Assembly: GCA_022600195.1 (NCBI GenBank)
Contig: JAHZKX010000042.1
Location: forward strand, 1-64,000
DNA: 64,000 nt
Reading direction: 5' to 3'
DNA from: Planctomycetota bacterium
Lineage (GTDB): Bacteria; Planctomycetota; Planctomycetia; Planctomycetales; Planctomycetaceae
A model generated the notes under the pieces. That model was not told where the DNA came from. It made no database searches and saw only the letters and a list, made by a program, of their open reading frames with translations. The translations under genes were made by a program, and so were the position numbers. Positions within the stretch are counted from its first letter, which is position 1. Each line of letters starts with the position of its first letter. Positions 1 through 62,723 of this stretch are shown piece by piece.

Positions 1-347
1 ACCCAGTACTTCATTGGACTGAGGGAACTGGTCAGAGATGGCGTTCTCCTGGTCGTTAGCTGCCAGCTCTCCTCCCTGGAAGGCTCTAATGGCGTCGGTC
101 CAGGCCTTGAAGGGCCCGTACATTAACCCACCGTCGAACCACGGAGTGATTTCGTTCAGTTGCATACGAGGGTTGTTGGGTGCGTAGCCGGTGTTGAAGT
201 CGTATCGGTTACGAAGGAAGGGGATCATCCTGTCTGAGCGACAGTCCCTGTCGAACAGGGGGTGGCATTTGGGTACCTTGATGAACTCGTACTCTGGTGT
301 GCAACCGGCTCTCTGGGCATCCAACACTTCCTCGACAACCTGTTGAC
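1..347 (-). CDS. Internal exon of an animal dual oxidase (peroxidase-homology domain), partial, foreign to the rest of the window
   Basis: Read on the minus strand from 347 to 1 there is an uninterrupted frame with no start codon. It contains VVEEVLDAQRAGCTPEY, then MIPFLRNRYD, NTGYAPNNPR, QLNEITPWFDGG and AWTDAIRAFQGGEL. These match, in order, the haem-peroxidase-homology domain of metazoan dual oxidases (the GCPPEY, PF-R-R-D-TG-SPNNPR, N-vT-wiDGs and W-dAlRsF-G-L blocks). The frame is closed upstream by a TGA in AT-rich sequence, and a CAG acceptor preceded by a pyrimidine-rich CCCCTTCTCTATAA sits exactly where similarity begins. That is the look of an intron/exon boundary. The other end runs off the window. 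Codon choice is rich in C-ending codons, unlike the neighbouring genes. It is best explained as metazoan DNA joined to bacterial DNA. Bacterial animal-type peroxidases exist but would not carry a splice site. The exact exon start could instead be the next CAG, 8 bases further in. Confidence 0.82.
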
Positions 348-437
348 CTGTTATAGAGAAGGGGATAATATATATAATATATAAATATCAAAAGTAAGGA
401 CTTATCAGGCTTTCGGTTCCTTGGTAAATATTAATGT
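348..437. other. Intron-like AT-rich sequence and junction between eukaryotic and bacterial DNA
   Basis: On the minus strand a pyrimidine-rich tract and CAG (348-350) end an AT-repeat stretch (365-389, almost pure A/T) that looks like the 3' end of an animal intron. On the plus strand the bacterial gene begins at 438 with no convincing ribosome-binding site and no recognisable promoter in the last 50 bases. The join between the two genomes should therefore lie between about 360 and 430. No adapter, run of N or repeated junction motif is visible. Confidence 0.6.
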
Positions 438-3400
438 ATGAAACAACGACAACATAGAATCATTCGATCTGCCTCTGGTTTCGGGCTGTGTCTGCTGGGG
501 CTCTGTTTCTCACAATCATCGTCTGGCGCTGAAGGTGTCGACTATCTCAAGCAGATTAAACCGATTTTTGCTGAGAAGTGCTATGCCTGTCATAGCTCAC
601 TCAAACAGGAATCGGAATTGCGTCTGGAAACGCGTGACCTCATGTTGAGAGGGGGTGACAGTGGCGCTGTGATCGTACCTGGTAAAATCGATGAGAGTCT
701 CCTGCTGCAACGCGTGATCGCCAAGGGAGACGAACAGATGCCACCACCGGGCGAAGGCTCCCGGCTGTCAAAGCATGAAATTGAATTGATCAAGAGCTGG
801 ATTGCGCAAGGTGCCATTTCTCCCAAAGAAGAAATACCTGGTAGTCCCAAAGATCATTGGTCGTTTCGGCCTCCTGTGAAAGCGAAAGTTCCACAAGGTC
901 ACACTGGTCCGGCAATGCGAAATCCCATCGACGCCTTTCTGGCTGCACAGCGAGAGAAACAGGGATTACTCAGTGTGAAGCCCGCATCGAAGCGTGTATT
1001 GTTACGTCGCGTTTATCTTGATTTGGTCGGCTTGCCACCTACACAGGAACAGATTCAGAATTTCGTGAATGATTCGGACAGCGACGCTTATGAGAAAATT
1101 GTAAATAAATTATTAGCGAGCCCGCAATACGGCGAACGATGGGGCCGCCACTGGATGGATATCTGGAGATATACAGACTGGTACGGACTGGGAGCACAGT
1201 TACGTTACAGCCAGAAACATATCTGGCACTGGCGAGACTGGATTATCGAATCACTGAATCAGGACAGTAGTTATGCCGAGATGATTCAGGATATGCTGGC
1301 CGCCGATGAAATCAAACCGACTGATCACAAAGCGCTTCGCGCTACCGGTTTTCTGGCGCGACATTATTATCTCTTCAATCGCACAACCTGGCTCGACAGT
1401 ACTCTCGAACATACATCGAAAGCATTTTTGGGACTGACGATGAATTGTGCCAAATGCCACGATCACAAATATGATCCGCTGACGAACGTCGATTATTATC
1501 AGATGCGGGCCATTTTTGAACCTTATCAGGTACGTCTTGACGCACTTCCCGGCGAGACAGATCTTGAGAAAAATGGCTTGCCGCGCATCTTCGATGCCCA
1601 CGCTGATACAAAAACTTTCGTGCACATTCGCGGCAATGAGAAGGCCCCGGATAAAAGCCGGGAAATGAAGCCTGCTCCCCCGGAACTCTTCACATTCGAT
1701 GAATTCAAGATTACTCCGGTAACTCTACCACCGGAAGCACATCATCCGGCGATGCAGGAATTCGTCTTGAAAGACCAGCTCAAAATAGCATCAACTAAGA
1801 TTGAAATTGCCCAAAAAACGTTACAGCAAGCCAATAAACAACTGGCGGATCTCGAACAGAAAGAGAAGTTAGAACAGAAATCGAAACCCAATCTGGATCA
1901 GCAGAAAAAAACTGAGAAAGCAGAACCATTTCTGGTTGACGATTTTGAAAAAGCGAATCCACAACTCTGGACGATGGGTCCCGGACAGTGGGCTTTTCAG
2001 AAGGGAAAACTGATTCAAACAAAAACCGGTTACGGACGTGCGTATCTACGTTCACTTCAGGACCACCCACAGAACTTTAAAGCAACATTCAAATTCAAAA
2101 CGACGGGTGGAGATAAATGGCGCTCGGTCGGGCTGGCCTTCGATGTGAATGGCAAGCGGGAGAAGATGATCTATCTGAGTGCTGTCCAGCCCGGTTCCAA
2201 GTTGCAGGTTTCCTACAACGCAGGTTCCAAATCGGTGTATCCCGGTGACGCCGTACATGCATGCAAGGTGAATTTGAATGTACCTTACGAATTGGAAATC
2301 AAAGTCCGCGATCAACTGGTCAATGTTGCTCTGAATGGAGAGCACGCCATCTCTTATACACTTCCAGTAAAGCGAGAGGCCGGGAAAATTGATATCCTGG
2401 CTTTTGATGCCGCTGCGGAATTTGACATGGTTCGTATCAGTTCTCTCTCTTTAAGTGATTCATTAATCGATGGCAAGAAATCAGCGAAAATTACACTGAA
2501 TCTTGCCAGAGCGAAATCAAAAACCGCTAGTGTGTCTCTCAAGGTTGCACAACGCTTTAAAGAATCATTGCAGACAGCCTACGCTGCGGATAAATCCAGA
2601 TATTCGAAACAGTCGGTGACGAAACAAACAGAGTTAAAACAGGCAGCCGCTCTGGCCGCACGAAAATATGAACTGGCCGTTGCAGAACAAAAACTGGCAC
2701 AGGTAGAAGAAAAATTGGAAGCAACGACAGGCGAGGCAAAGAAAAAAGTCGAAAAAGAAATCGTCGCCGCCATGAAGCAGCTTGAAAAAGCCCGGCAGAC
2801 GGTCAAAAAACCCGGTGAGAAATATACGCGCGTCCGAGCCTCACGCAAAGCCCTGGAAGGGCCCGCTGAAAAAGACGATTCACGCTACAAACCATTTCCG
2901 GAAACCAGCACCGGGCGTCGCACGGCGTTTGCCCGCTGGATGACACATCGCAAGAATCCGTTAACGGCTCGCGTTGCCGTCAATCATATCTGGTTAAGAC
3001 ACTTTGGCCAGCCGCTGGTGAACGAGGTGACCGATTTCGGTTTACGCAGCAGTCAGCCCATACAACATGAATTATTGGATTGGCTCGCTGTCGATTTCAT
3101 GGAACATAATTGGAGTATGAAGCATCTGCATCATTTGATGGTGACTTCTAACGCCTATCAGCTCGGCAGTTCCACAATCGATGCAGATTCTCAGACACAG
3201 CAAAAGGATAAAGAAAATCATTATTACTGGCGTCGAAATATGGTGCGGATGGAATCAGAAGTGATCCGGGACAGTCTGCTCCATCTGGCGGGAGAACTGG
3301 ATTTGACCAGAGGGGGACCGACAATTGATCCTGCTAAAAATCCCGATAGTAAACGCCGCAGCTTGTATTTTACAACATCCCGCGATGCCCATGATAAATT

Positions 3401-3758
3401 TCTCAGTATGTTTGATTCTGCAGACATCTTTGCCTGTTATCGACGCAATCAAAGTGTTGTACCACAACAGGCATTGGCGCTTGCCAACAGTAAGGTCTCT
3501 TTACAGATGGCACGTAAAATTACGGAAGGAATTCGCACTAAACATCCTCAACTGAACGATCAGGAATTTATTCAGCGAGCTTATGAGAAAATTCTGTGTG
3601 TGAAGCCCACTCCACAGGAATCCTCGCTCTGCCTGCAAGCCTTAGCCAAAACACAGACTGCATTGAAAACGACGAAGAATCAGCAACCGATCTGGCGATC
3701 GCGTGAGAATCTGGTTCATGCTTTACTCAACCATAACGATTTCATCACGATTCGATGA
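438..3758 (+). CDS. PSCyt1/DUF1549/DUF1553 cytochrome-type protein with LamG-like insert
   Basis: Secreted multidomain protein of 1106 residues, a class expanded in planctomycetes and usually paired with DUF1501 proteins. A signal peptide covers about residues 1-31. A planctomycete cytochrome c domain (PSCyt1) follows with haem motif CYACH at 48-52. DUF1549 (PSCyt2) spans roughly 150-360 and carries a second haem-like motif CAKCH at 337-341, followed by DHKYDP. A Lys/Gln-rich coiled coil lies near 440-490, a concanavalin/LamG-like beta domain near 495-665 and a second coiled coil near 680-800. DUF1553 (PSD1) occupies about 830-1085 with the usual HIWLRHFGQPLV block. The DUF1501 gene follows after 9 bases, so the two are surely co-transcribed. 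The family is suspected to work in polysaccharide breakdown or periplasmic electron transfer; no biochemical role is established. The start is ATG with a weak upstream ribosome site, because foreign DNA begins just upstream. Confidence 0.9.
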   Translation: MKQRQHRIIRSASGFGLCLLGLCFSQSSSGAEGVDYLKQIKPIFAEKCYACHSSLKQESELRLETRDLMLRGGDSGAVIVPGKIDESLLLQRVIAKGDEQMPPPGEGSRLSKHEIELIKSWIAQGAISPKEEIPGSPKDHWSFRPPVKAKVPQGHTGPAMRNPIDAFLAAQREKQGLLSVKPASKRVLLRRVYLDLVGLPPTQEQIQNFVNDSDSDAYEKIVNKLLASPQYGERWGRHWMDIWRYTDWYGLGAQLRYSQKHIWHWRDWIIESLNQDSSYAEMIQDMLAADEIKPTDHKALRATGFLARHYYLFNRTTWLDSTLEHTSKAFLGLTMNCAKCHDHKYDPLTNVDYYQMRAIFEPYQVRLDALPGETDLEKNGLPRIFDAHADTKTFVHIRGNEKAPDKSREMKPAPPELFTFDEFKITPVTLPPEAHHPAMQEFVLKDQLKIASTKIEIAQKTLQQANKQLADLEQKEKLEQKSKPNLDQQKKTEKAEPFLVDDFEKANPQLWTMGPGQWAFQKGKLIQTKTGYGRAYLRSLQDHPQNFKATFKFKTTGGDKWRSVGLAFDVNGKREKMIYLSAVQPGSKLQVSYNAGSKSVYPGDAVHACKVNLNVPYELEIKVRDQLVNVALNGEHAISYTLPVKREAGKIDILAFDAAAEFDMVRISSLSLSDSLIDGKKSAKITLNLARAKSKTASVSLKVAQRFKESLQTAYAADKSRYSKQSVTKQTELKQAAALAARKYELAVAEQKLAQVEEKLEATTGEAKKKVEKEIVAAMKQLEKARQTVKKPGEKYTRVRASRKALEGPAEKDDSRYKPFPETSTGRRTAFARWMTHRKNPLTARVAVNHIWLRHFGQPLVNEVTDFGLRSSQPIQHELLDWLAVDFMEHNWSMKHLHHLMVTSNAYQLGSSTIDADSQTQQKDKENHYYWRRNMVRMESEVIRDSLLHLAGELDLTRGGPTIDPAKNPDSKRRSLYFTTSRDAHDKFLSMFDSADIFACYRRNQSVVPQQALALANSKVSLQMARKITEGIRTKHPQLNDQEFIQRAYEKILCVKPTPQESSLCLQALAKTQTALKTTKNQQPIWRSRENLVHALLNHNDFITIR

Positions 3759-3767
3759 AGGTGCGTC

Positions 3768-5234
3768 ATGCATACACAAAATTCAATTGAACACGCCTCG
3801 GGAAATCTTCCACGCCGTAATTTTCTCACGAGCCTCAGTTCGGGGCTTGCCGGAATTTCATTGGCTTCTCTGTTACAGGATGAGCAAAAGTCCCAGGCGG
3901 CAACAGGACATCGTCCTCCTGACGGAAAAACACATTTTCCACCGAAAGCAAAAAGTGTGATCTGGATGTTCATGCGGGGTGGCGTCAGTCATATGGAAAG
4001 CTTCGACCCCAAGCCGATGTTGACCAAATATGCGGGGAAATCCATCAACGAAACTCCCTGGAAAAGTGTGCAGGAATCTGAAAAACTGAAACGCGTTCGT
4101 GTGGTTGTGGTCAATGATGCCAACGGACAACAACGGAACAAGGTTTATCCGCTGCAGGTTGGTTACAAAAAATATGGTGAGAGTGGTATCGAAGTCAGTG
4201 ACTGGTTTCCTCACATTGGTGGCTGTGTCGATGATATTTCGGTCGTTCGCTCCATGTGGACCACAGATGACAATCATGGGGCGCAAGTGCAATTCCATTC
4301 CGGGCGTCATATGCTGGACGGGCGCGTGCCTACCATCGGTGCCTGGATTAACTACGGGCTGGGGACATTGAACGAAAATCTTCCGCAATTCATCAACATG
4401 GGGCCACGCTATTTTGATGTGAGAGACGGACACTATCTGGGCCCTGCCTATGATTCAGTTCCCCTCAAGGTCGATCCGAAAAATCCGCTTCCCTACGCAA
4501 AGCCGGAACTGGATCTTTCAAACGAAGAACAAAAAATCGAGTTTTCACTGATCAATCAGCTCAATCGGCTCAGTGCCGAAAAATACCCCAATGACAGTAC
4601 ACTTCAAGCGCGAATTAAATCTTACGAACTGGCATTTCGCATGCAATCCGCAGTACCTGAAGTGATTCAGTTCGACCAGGAAACAAAAGAGACTCAGGAT
4701 CTTTATGGCCTGAACAATCCTGCGACAAAACCATTTGGAATGCAATTACTGGCCGCACGCCGATTTGTAGAGAAGGGCGTGCGTTTCATTCAAATTATGC
4801 ACGGCGCTGGTGCAGCGGGCGCCTGGGATTCGCATTCCAATTTGAAGGCCAGTCACTCTAAACTGGCGATGCAGGTGGATCAACCAGCGGCCGGACTCTT
4901 GAAAGATTTGAAACGACGGGGACTGCTCGAAGATACCATTGTCGTGTTTGCTACCGAATTCGGTCGAACTCCCGGGTCACAGGGCAGCAATGGCCGCGAC
5001 CACCATCCGTATGGCTTTTCAATCTGGATGGCTGGCGGGGGTATTAAAGGAGGTCTGGCACACGGAACAACTGATGAACTTGGTTTCCATGCTGAAGAAC
5101 ATCCTCATTATGTGACCGACGTCCATGCGACTCTCATGAAACAATTAGGGATCCACGCACAACGACTGGAAGTTCCCGGGCATAAACGACTGGAAATGGA
5201 TTTCGGTCACTCTATCGACGAAATCATCGCTTAA
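3768..5234 (+). CDS. DUF1501 family protein, Tat-exported
   Basis: A 488-residue DUF1501 protein, distantly related to the alkaline phosphatase/sulfatase fold. The N-terminus has a twin-arginine signal ([12 protein letters not shown], near residue 16), so export in folded form is likely. Family blocks visible are [16 protein letters not shown] near 65, [20 protein letters not shown] in the middle, and [25 protein letters not shown] with [10 protein letters not shown] toward the C-terminus. These His/Asp residues resemble the metal site of the superfamily. The start at 3768 has GAAGGTG just upstream, partly overlapping the end of the preceding DUF1549/DUF1553 gene. Co-occurrence with that gene is typical and suggests the two proteins work together in the periplasm, but the substrate is unknown. 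A second pair of this kind lies at 58923-62723. Confidence 0.92.
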
Positions 5235-60329: not shown

Positions 60330-62723
60330 TTAATCAACATAACGAAATTCATTTGAAGTCAGCAATGCCTGGCAAAGTGTGGCCCAGACTGTCACACGAC
60401 GAATTTCTTCCTGGGAAATTTTTGTTTTTAATTCGGCGTCAACATTTTTAATCAGAGTCAAAGCCCGCTGGAGTTCAGATGACTGTGGAACACGATTTAA
60501 CACCCGCAGGTAAACCCGATGTACACGGCCCGAATCATCCAGGTCAGGGAGCGCCAGAATCTCTTTGGAAAAGAGTTGAGCCTGTTCAATCAGAAACGAA
60601 CTGTTCATCAGGAATAAACTCTGTGTCGGCAGAGTCGTTTCGTTACGTTGCCCCACGGGTCGTGTCGAGTCGGGCAGGTCAAATGCTGACAGTTCCGATG
60701 GTTCGGAATGACGCAGCAGGCACAGGTAAATACTGCGATGATTACTGGGCAGATGCAGGTTGCCTGCCTTATTGACCAACTCGTCTACATTCGCGATTGC
60801 AGAGCCCAGACCGGGTTCTCTGTTAAGCTGACCACTGACAGCAAGGATACTGTCTCTCAGTGATTCGGCATCCAGTCGCCGACGGTTATGCCGACAGAGA
60901 AGCTTGTTTTCCGGATCAGCATCCAGGACCAGATCGTCACAGAAACTGCTGAGCTGATAAGTGTGGCTCAGCACGATCTGACGAATCATTTGCTTGATGG
61001 ACCAGCCTTCAGTGCGGAAGCGTGTTGCCAGGTGGTCGAGCAACTCGGGGTGAGTGGGGCGTTCCCCATAGACTCCAAAATCATCAGGGGTGCGAACCAG
61101 CGCCTGACCAAACAGATGCAGCCAGATCCGGTTTGCCATCACCCGCGAGGTCTGCGGGTGATCTTCAGAGGTAAGCCACGCAGCCAGTTGCAGACGACCA
61201 CTCGATTTGGCTCCGATTTGGGGTGCCTGTTTGATCTTGCAGGCCGACAGAAACCCGCGAGGTACACTGGGACCCAGTTTCTTGGATTCCCCTTTGATAT
61301 TAATTTTGCAGTCGACCAGCTTTTTCTTTTCTCGGACCCCCATTGCCAGTGCTGTGCCGGGAGTGTAGACATTTTTCGGCTTCTTTTTTCTCGACAGAGT
61401 ATACTTATCGATCACGGGTTTCGCACCGCTGTCCGGCGAAGGAACGTAGACGTCCTTCGACTTCAGGACATGCAGGGGAGTTTCCGGTGCTGTTAACGGT
61501 TGATTGGCGGCAAATCCCCACATGGTTTCAGTGCTGAGGAAAATGCCGGCCAGCGCATAATAGTCACTGGTTGGAATCGGATCATGTTTGTGGTCATGAC
61601 AACGGGCACACGCCACGCTGAGTCCCATGACGGCTGTGCTGACCACGTCAATCTGATCGTTCACAACGTCCATCTGAAAGTTGACGTTCATTGCTTTTGC
61701 CGGTTTCGAACCCAGCGCCAGAAAACCGGTTGCGACCAGCAGACGATCACGTTCCTCGGGAGAATCCGCGGGTAAGAGATCTCCGGCAATCTGTTCTGTC
61801 AGAAAACGATCATAGGGGACATTATTGTTTATAGCCTGAATGACATAATCACGATATCGCCAGGCATGAGGGAAGGTGGGATTACGTCCCAGACCATCAT
61901 TACCGTTAGATTCACCATAGCGGGCGAGATCCAGCCAGTGTCGTCCCCAGCGTTCTCCAAAATGTGGTGAAGCGAGTAACTCGTCGACCAGATGCGCGAC
62001 GGCCCGTTGTTGACGTTTTTGATAGTCAGCCAGAAAGGATTCGACCTGTTCTGCCGTGGGGGGGAGACCGATCAGATCATAATACAAACGCCGTACCAGT
62101 CTCACCGGAGCGGCATCATGTGTGGGTGCTGACTTAGCCGCTTCGATACGCGAGAGAATAAAATGATCGAGGGGATCATAGCACCAGCTTTCATTTTGCA
62201 CCAAAGGTAACTCAGGCTGAGAGATCGGCTGAAACGACCAGAGTGCGGGATTCGTTACCACCTTTTCAAGAGTTGGCTTTTTCGCAATCAAAGGGTGATC
62301 GATCCGCGGATCGGGCACACCCATTTTGACCCAGGTGATAAAATCGTTGATGACAGCTTCGGGAAGCGGTTCATTCGGCGGCATTTCCAAGCCATCGTAA
62401 CGCAGGGCTTGAATCAGAAGGCTTTCTTTAGGCCGCCCTTCCACAAATGCGGGCCCCGATTCACCACCAACGCGCATGCCATCACGCGTATCCATGCGGA
62501 GCTTGCCCCCCAGTTCCTCTGATTTTGAGGAATGGCAGGAATAACATTTCTTGACGAGGACCGGACGAATTTTGTTCTCAAAAAACGCCCGCTGTTTGGG
62601 GTCCATTTTTGAGTGAGCCGACTTACCAGCCGGTTTTTTTGCACTCCAGACCGGTTCCTCTGTACAGAACGAGATCGCGATAAACCAACAGGCGATTGAG
62701 ATCAGGGTGAAACATTGACGCAT
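60330..62723 (-). CDS. PSCyt1/DUF1549/DUF1553 cytochrome-type protein, second copy
   Basis: A 797-residue exported protein. A signal segment (about 5-20) is followed by PSCyt1 with haem motif CYSCH at 60-64. DUF1549 (about 165-390) has HFGERWGRHWLDLARYGESNG and CARCHDHKHDP as a second haem-like motif. DUF1553 (about 505-785) has VMANRIWLHLFGQALVRTPDDFG and FDLPDSTRPVGQRNETTLPTQSL. It lacks the LamG-like and coiled-coil insert of the 438-3758 copy. The start at ATG 62723 is preferred over an in-frame TTG three codons earlier. It is the first gene of the sulfatase operon and has a good promoter upstream. Its biochemical role is not established. Confidence 0.9.
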   Translation of the reverse strand: MRQCFTLISIACWFIAISFCTEEPVWSAKKPAGKSAHSKMDPKQRAFFENKIRPVLVKKCYSCHSSKSEELGGKLRMDTRDGMRVGGESGPAFVEGRPKESLLIQALRYDGLEMPPNEPLPEAVINDFITWVKMGVPDPRIDHPLIAKKPTLEKVVTNPALWSFQPISQPELPLVQNESWCYDPLDHFILSRIEAAKSAPTHDAAPVRLVRRLYYDLIGLPPTAEQVESFLADYQKRQQRAVAHLVDELLASPHFGERWGRHWLDLARYGESNGNDGLGRNPTFPHAWRYRDYVIQAINNNVPYDRFLTEQIAGDLLPADSPEERDRLLVATGFLALGSKPAKAMNVNFQMDVVNDQIDVVSTAVMGLSVACARCHDHKHDPIPTSDYYALAGIFLSTETMWGFAANQPLTAPETPLHVLKSKDVYVPSPDSGAKPVIDKYTLSRKKKPKNVYTPGTALAMGVREKKKLVDCKINIKGESKKLGPSVPRGFLSACKIKQAPQIGAKSSGRLQLAAWLTSEDHPQTSRVMANRIWLHLFGQALVRTPDDFGVYGERPTHPELLDHLATRFRTEGWSIKQMIRQIVLSHTYQLSSFCDDLVLDADPENKLLCRHNRRRLDAESLRDSILAVSGQLNREPGLGSAIANVDELVNKAGNLHLPSNHRSIYLCLLRHSEPSELSAFDLPDSTRPVGQRNETTLPTQSLFLMNSSFLIEQAQLFSKEILALPDLDDSGRVHRVYLRVLNRVPQSSELQRALTLIKNVDAELKTKISQEEIRRVTVWATLCQALLTSNEFRYVD

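What the first reader, a model, noticed from the sequence alone, without database searches (positions are those of the whole stretch)
1..347. Metazoan dual oxidase exon at the edge of a planctomycete contig
The minus-strand frame 347-1 matches the DUOX peroxidase-homology domain in several consecutive blocks, and is preceded by an intron-like AT tract with a 3' splice acceptor. The remaining 63.6 kb is planctomycete. Either the assembly joined animal and bacterial DNA, the bacterium was sequenced together with an animal, or (least likely) the bacterial DNA is inserted in an animal genome.
Basis: partly seen in the sequence, partly recalled or inferred. Interest (0 to 1): 0.85.

Follow-up and report, generated by a model that had tools for sequence, protein, structure and literature searches.

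The report
Animal gene scrap on bacterial contig
The first 366 letters look like a scrap of an animal dual oxidase gene that was almost certainly joined by mistake to the end of a piece of a bacterial (Gimesia) genome during sequencing or assembly, so this is most likely contamination and not gene transfer.

Summary
The minus-strand frame 348-1 is part of a peroxidase-homology domain of animal dual-oxidase (DUOX) type: Pfam An_peroxidase E 3.7e-15, best solved structures mouse and human DUOX1, Asp-His-Asp motif lost as in DUOX1. Homology begins exactly at the glycine codon 348-346 even when the frame is read further upstream.

From 367 on it is a conserved Gimesia upstream element, to which 13 of 16 congeners align from 367/368. 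Only 348-366 is intron-like (polypyrimidine, CAG|G).

The window starts at base 1 of contig C67. The missing native sequence is the end of contig C32 of the same genome, whose last base abuts window 367; joined, they match 11 of 11 congeners aligned. So 1-366 is a foreign cap on a contig end. No other An_peroxidase was found in the genome. Identity to human DUOX1 is about 40%, so human contamination is unlikely and an invertebrate is the likely source (inference). Confidence in contamination is 0.94. A true insertion is not strictly excluded without reads (0.03).

The parts
1..347 (-). Fragment of one exon of an animal-type dual oxidase (DUOX) gene, part of the peroxidase-homology domain, cut off by the contig start at base 1
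   Evidence: PF03098 E 3.7e-15; mouse/human DUOX1 E 1.4e-23/3e-22; 41%/40% identity over 95 aa; lacks the DHD motif; no relative confirmed in genome contigs or viral contigs
348..366 (-). Probable last 19 bases of the animal intron before that exon (polypyrimidine tract, CAG|G acceptor, phase 1); inferred
   Evidence: Sequence read directly; homology to DUOX1 begins at the Gly codon 348-346 when the frame is read upstream to 387; does not match congeners
366..367 (.). Chimeric junction, foreign (1-366) to Gimesia (367 on)
367..437 (+). Right half of a conserved AT-rich upstream element and leader of the native genes; its left half is the end of contig C32
   Evidence: Alignment with 11 congeners; one copy in each of 14 of 17 genomes of the genus searched, this one included, at up to 3 mismatches
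438..3758 (+). Native PSCyt1-DUF1549-DUF1553 protein (1106 aa), first gene after the junction
   Evidence: Pfam; aligned in congeners
3768..5234 (+). Native DUF1501 protein (488 aa)
   Evidence: Pfam; aligned in congeners

Best explanation
Bases 1-366 are a piece of an animal DUOX gene (the end of one intron and the start of the next exon, on the minus strand) attached by mistake to the end of a Gimesia contig. Shown: the DUOX-type homology; the junction at 366/367; the native continuation of the chromosome present as the end of another contig (C32), directly adjacent in congeners; contig ends elsewhere in the genome that share exact words of up to 141 bases, the mark of a k=141 de Bruijn-graph assembly. 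Inferred: the sample held DNA of an animal, probably an invertebrate; the AT-only stretch at the junction (365-388) was weakly covered or ambiguous, so the native path broke there; and either a short AT-rich word shared with the animal intron or a chimeric read led the assembler from bacterial into animal DNA for 366 bases until a dead end.
For: (1) DUOX rather than bacterial peroxidase: best E-values. In pairwise blastp mouse/human DUOX1 score 94.7/90.5 bits against at most 68.9 for the planctomycete fragments. The Asp-His-Asp motif is present in 9 of 9 planctomycete fragments aligned (9 of the 27 other genomes with a match) and in 8s6c, but absent from the query and both DUOX1. A paper passage states that the Drosophila Duox domain lacks the proximal and distal histidines (PMC4654585). 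(2) Empty site: congeners align only from 367/368. The upstream half of the element lies at the end of C32. C32 end plus C67 from 367 fits 11 of 11 congeners (26-32 of 35 bases left of the junction, against 13-16 of 35 for window 332-366, best of 9 shifts). (3) C67 start and C32 end are both dead ends, 2 of 34 among the 166 of 168 contig ends examined. (4) Words of 138-141 bases are shared between many other contig ends. (5) Another Gimesia MAG contig (L184, same length and contig number as G006:C358) also ends inside this element, at window 388. (6) No other PF03098 match in the genome at E up to 1 and no second copy of 111-366 (best other match 26 bases, E 0.0027).
Against: No reads or depth were available, so the junction itself was not tested. 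C32 ends exactly at the junction with no shared word longer than 10 bases, whereas a plain unresolved graph branch would normally leave a shared k-mer; the precise assembly step is unexplained. No second piece of animal DNA was recognised: Pfam on 10 of the 34 dead-end tips gave no animal-type family. The percent-identity gap is small: 41/40% to DUOX1 against up to 38% or 39% to planctomycete peroxidases; the case rests on score and motif. The base composition of 1-366 is unusual but not extreme (7th lowest of 166 tips; 35 of 3725 interior pieces score lower). The animal source is not identified.
Confidence: 0.94

Rival explanations
1. Genuine transfer: a piece of animal DNA, with intron end and exon, is inserted in this Gimesia chromosome between C32 and C67.
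For: C32 ends exactly at the junction and C67 carries foreign DNA from there, which an insertion between the two would also give; no read data contradict it.
Against: Only 366 bases are seen and they run to a contig end; C32 carries none of the insert; no listed congener match covers it and no relative was confirmed in genome contigs or viral contigs; a piece of an intron-bearing gene would not be expected to work in a bacterium (inference); the junction lies in an AT tract where another draft genome also breaks.
Confidence: 0.03
2. The frame is a native bacterial haem peroxidase (planctomycete An_peroxidase) that happens to sit here.
For: 14 of 16 congeners, and 27 of the 58 other genomes searched, encode a related peroxidase, 33-39% identical over the fragment; the percent identity to DUOX1 is only slightly higher (41/40%).
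Against: Scores to DUOX1 are clearly stronger, and the Asp-His-Asp motif present in 9 of 9 planctomycete fragments aligned is missing. The congener peroxidases lie on another contig or at least about 0.45 Mb away from this operon and are 33-38% identical in protein, whereas the neighbouring operon is 71-80% identical in DNA. Homology stops at a splice-like CAG|G.
Confidence: 0.02
3. Gimesia DNA is inserted in an animal genome and the contig is animal.
For: Only the physical juxtaposition.
Against: 113 kb contig whose first genes align with one-contig Gimesia genomes, in a 6.58 Mb genome of 99.99% completeness.
Confidence: 0.005

Closest known systems
Eukaryotic contamination at contig ends of bacterial draft genomes (Conterminator paper, PMC7218494; FCS-GX paper, PMC10898089; passages seen)
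   Same: Foreign-kingdom DNA as a flank of an otherwise correct contig. [quoted passage not shown] a passage of PMC10898089 describes a test with 1-kb contaminants added to contig ends.
   Different: Here the displaced native flank was located (C32), so the junction is known to the base. The foreign piece is only 366 bases, shorter than the 1-kb pieces of that test.
Animal dual oxidase (DUOX), peroxidase-homology domain
   Same: Sequence, register, loss of the Asp-His-Asp motif
   Different: Only about 116 codons, all apparently of one exon; no EF-hand, ferric-reductase or NADPH-binding part present

Membership tests
Animal dual oxidase (DUOX) | Peroxidase-homology domain closer to DUOX than to catalytic peroxidases | tested here: met
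   DUOX1 E 1.4e-23/3e-22, next 2.9e-7; pairwise scores 94.7/90.5 bits against at most 68.9; percent identity differs only slightly
Animal dual oxidase (DUOX) | Loss of the distal-histidine motif found in catalytic peroxidases | tested here: met
   Query EEV and DUOX1 SDL where 9 of 9 planctomycete fragments and 8s6c have DHD; Drosophila Duox lacks the histidines (PMC4654585 passage)
Animal dual oxidase (DUOX) | EF hands and a NOX (ferric reductase, FAD/NADPH) part downstream | not testable with these tools
   The fragment is cut off at contig base 1. Elsewhere in the genome one PF08030 match (E 0.0025) lies inside an 869-residue open frame on C55
Animal dual oxidase (DUOX) | Spliceosomal intron at this position in homologues | not tested
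   No animal genomes in the tools; a CAG|G acceptor is read directly and homology begins there
Contig-end contamination / misassembly | Foreign part runs to a contig end | tested here: met
   Window base 1 is G000:C67 base 1
Contig-end contamination / misassembly | Native continuation exists elsewhere in the same assembly | tested here: met
   C32:60579 abuts C67:367
Contig-end contamination / misassembly | Uneven read depth or missing read pairs across the junction | not testable with these tools
   No reads available

The most novel reading that the evidence does not exclude
A Gimesia strain living with an invertebrate has taken up a piece of the animal's DUOX gene, which encodes an oxidase used in gut immunity, and carries it inserted in the conserved upstream element of a PSCyt1-DUF1549-DUF1553 gene.
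Probability: 0.03. Interest if true: 0.8.

Novelty: not a real feature. Interest (0 to 1): 0.07.

Why it matters
As an artefact it matters only for data hygiene: if annotated, the frame would enter databases as a bacterial DUOX-like protein. It also shows a cheap test that needs no reads: look for the native flank at the end of another contig and compare with congeners. If it were a real insertion, it would be an animal-to-bacterium transfer of a piece of an intron-bearing immune gene.

Tried and rejected
Relatives of the fragment were sought in genome contigs (157 pattern stretches, none confirmed) and viral contigs (9 stretches, none confirmed); these collections are not of animals, and records of the own genome may be left out there. 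Composition as a discriminator was weak. Overlap between the last 300 bases of C32 and window 1-420: no shared word longer than 10 bases. A promoter scan around the conserved element in L028 found one sigma-70-like site, where shuffles give 0.7 on average. Other contig ends as animal DNA: Pfam on 10 of the 34 dead-end tips, chosen by open frame, gave 5 with a match at E up to 0.01 (transposase, integrase, KR, BPL_N and, below its curated cut-off, Prok-JAB) and 5 without a match; no animal-type family. The high ends of C83 and C84 were not taken. Six paper searches were seen as listings with starts of abstracts; passages were seen in PMC10898089, PMC1940245, PMC4654585 and PMC7218494. The word intron does not occur in the held text of PMC1940245. 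One search for a Gimesia MAG paper did not point to this genome. The genome's own name is not known to me; the genus is inferred from L184, a Gimesia sp. record whose length and contig number equal those of G006:C358, a congener.

Full report
What is there. The window starts at base 1 of contig C67 (113,172 bp) of a 6.58 Mb, 84-contig genome scored 99.99% complete. The minus-strand frame 348-1 encodes 116 residues that match Pfam An_peroxidase (E 3.7e-15, profile positions 98-190 of 530). Among solved structures the best matches are mouse DUOX1 (1.4e-23) and human DUOX1 (3e-22), then 8s6c (2.9e-7) and peroxinectin A (0.0013). I aligned the query with nine planctomycete peroxidase fragments (those with loci, of 27 other genomes with a match), with 8s6c and with both DUOX1. 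The query and both DUOX1 lack the Asp-His-Asp motif that the other ten all have. [quoted passage not shown] I therefore call the fragment animal DUOX. The percent identity alone would not carry this: it is 41/40% to mouse/human DUOX1 over 95 residues, and up to 38% to the planctomycete fragments in the same call (up to 39%). At 40% identity to human DUOX1 it is unlikely to be human DNA; human DUOX2 was not compared (recalled to be close to DUOX1). Another eukaryote with a DUOX-like protein is not strictly excluded.

Where the foreign part ends. A search of 30 genomes (the own genome and 29 others, 16 of them congeners) with window 1-4500 gave alignments that start at 367 or 368 in 13 congeners. 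In a 14th (G006) the alignment starts at 388, where its contig ends. The last two show no alignment here: in G015 the match begins at 2735 at a contig edge, and G010 has only partial matches inside the genes. Only 348-366 is left as animal intron end: minus strand atccccttctctataacag followed by GT, with the exon starting at the second base of a glycine codon. Read upstream to 387, the open frame gives 13 more residues. phmmer with this longer frame still begins its match exactly at that glycine (residue 14), which aligns with Gly 88 of the mouse and Gly 103 of the human DUOX1 chain, although those chains continue upstream. The 19 bases hold no stop in frame, so the intron itself remains an inference.

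Where the native sequence went. In congener G013 the chromosome continues upstream with the other half of the element, then a membrane protein and SmpB (gene names from my own reading of the translations). Searching the own genome with that stretch found it on contig C32, reversed, up to base 60579. C32 is 60,579 bp long and ends in ...ttttgtataaaatatataaagaaa. Joining C32's end to C67 from 367 restores the congener sequence with no gap within 20 bases of the junction in any of the 11 congeners (G013 has one extra base about 24 bases to the left). Of the 35 bases left of the junction 26-32 agree with each congener, against 13-16 of 35 for window 332-366. With up to 3 mismatches the right half of the element occurs once in each of 14 of 17 genomes of the genus, this one included, and is not found in G006, G010 and G015.

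Why an assembly error. Many contig ends share exact 138-141 base words, which is the trace of a k=141 de Bruijn-graph assembly (MEGAHIT uses that k; recalled). C67 start and C32 end are both among the 34 of 166 examined ends that share no 31-mer of their last 141 bases with another end. The junction lies in an AT-only stretch (365-388), and a contig of another Gimesia MAG (L184) also ends within the element. The genome holds no other An_peroxidase match at E up to 1, one PF08030 match (E 0.0025) inside an 869-residue frame, and no second copy of 111-366 (best other match 26 bases, E 0.0027). [quoted passage not shown]

What remains open. The exact step that attached the animal piece is not shown: a short shared AT word in the graph, or a chimeric read. 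C32 stopping exactly at the junction without the usual shared word is unexplained, and would also fit a true insertion. Composition separates 1-366 only weakly (7th lowest of 166 tips; 35 of 3725 interior pieces lower). Reads would decide. The animal is not identified, because no animal genomes are held here.

Verdict. Contamination at a contig end, ordinary in kind. The DUOX observation is right; the intron tract is mostly wrong; the first-listed interpretation is the supported one.

Noticed in passing
window 367-405, with its left half at L038 3553-3579 (end of G000:C32): A roughly 60-base AT-rich element upstream of the PSCyt1-DUF1549-DUF1553 and DUF1501 genes is nearly invariant in 11 of 11 Gimesia genomes aligned, while its upstream flank is not conserved; its right half occurs once in each of 14 of 17 genomes searched. 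It may be a regulatory element; a promoter scan gave nothing clearly beyond shuffles.
   Followed up: partly
G000 (whole genome): 14 of 16 congeners have a PF03098-like peroxidase frame (33-38% identical to the fragment), but this genome has no PF03098 match apart from the foreign fragment.
   Followed up: no
G000 contig ends, e.g. C29, C51, C75, C77, C81 and C4, C6, C35, C41, C58, C60, C83: Families of 7 or more contig ends share the same terminal 138-141 bases, which points to multi-copy repeats that broke the assembly.
   Followed up: no
L046 (G000:C2, 6367 bp) and the ends of C19 (L063, L135): The two ends of each of these contigs carry the same 139-141 bases as inverted repeats.
   Followed up: no
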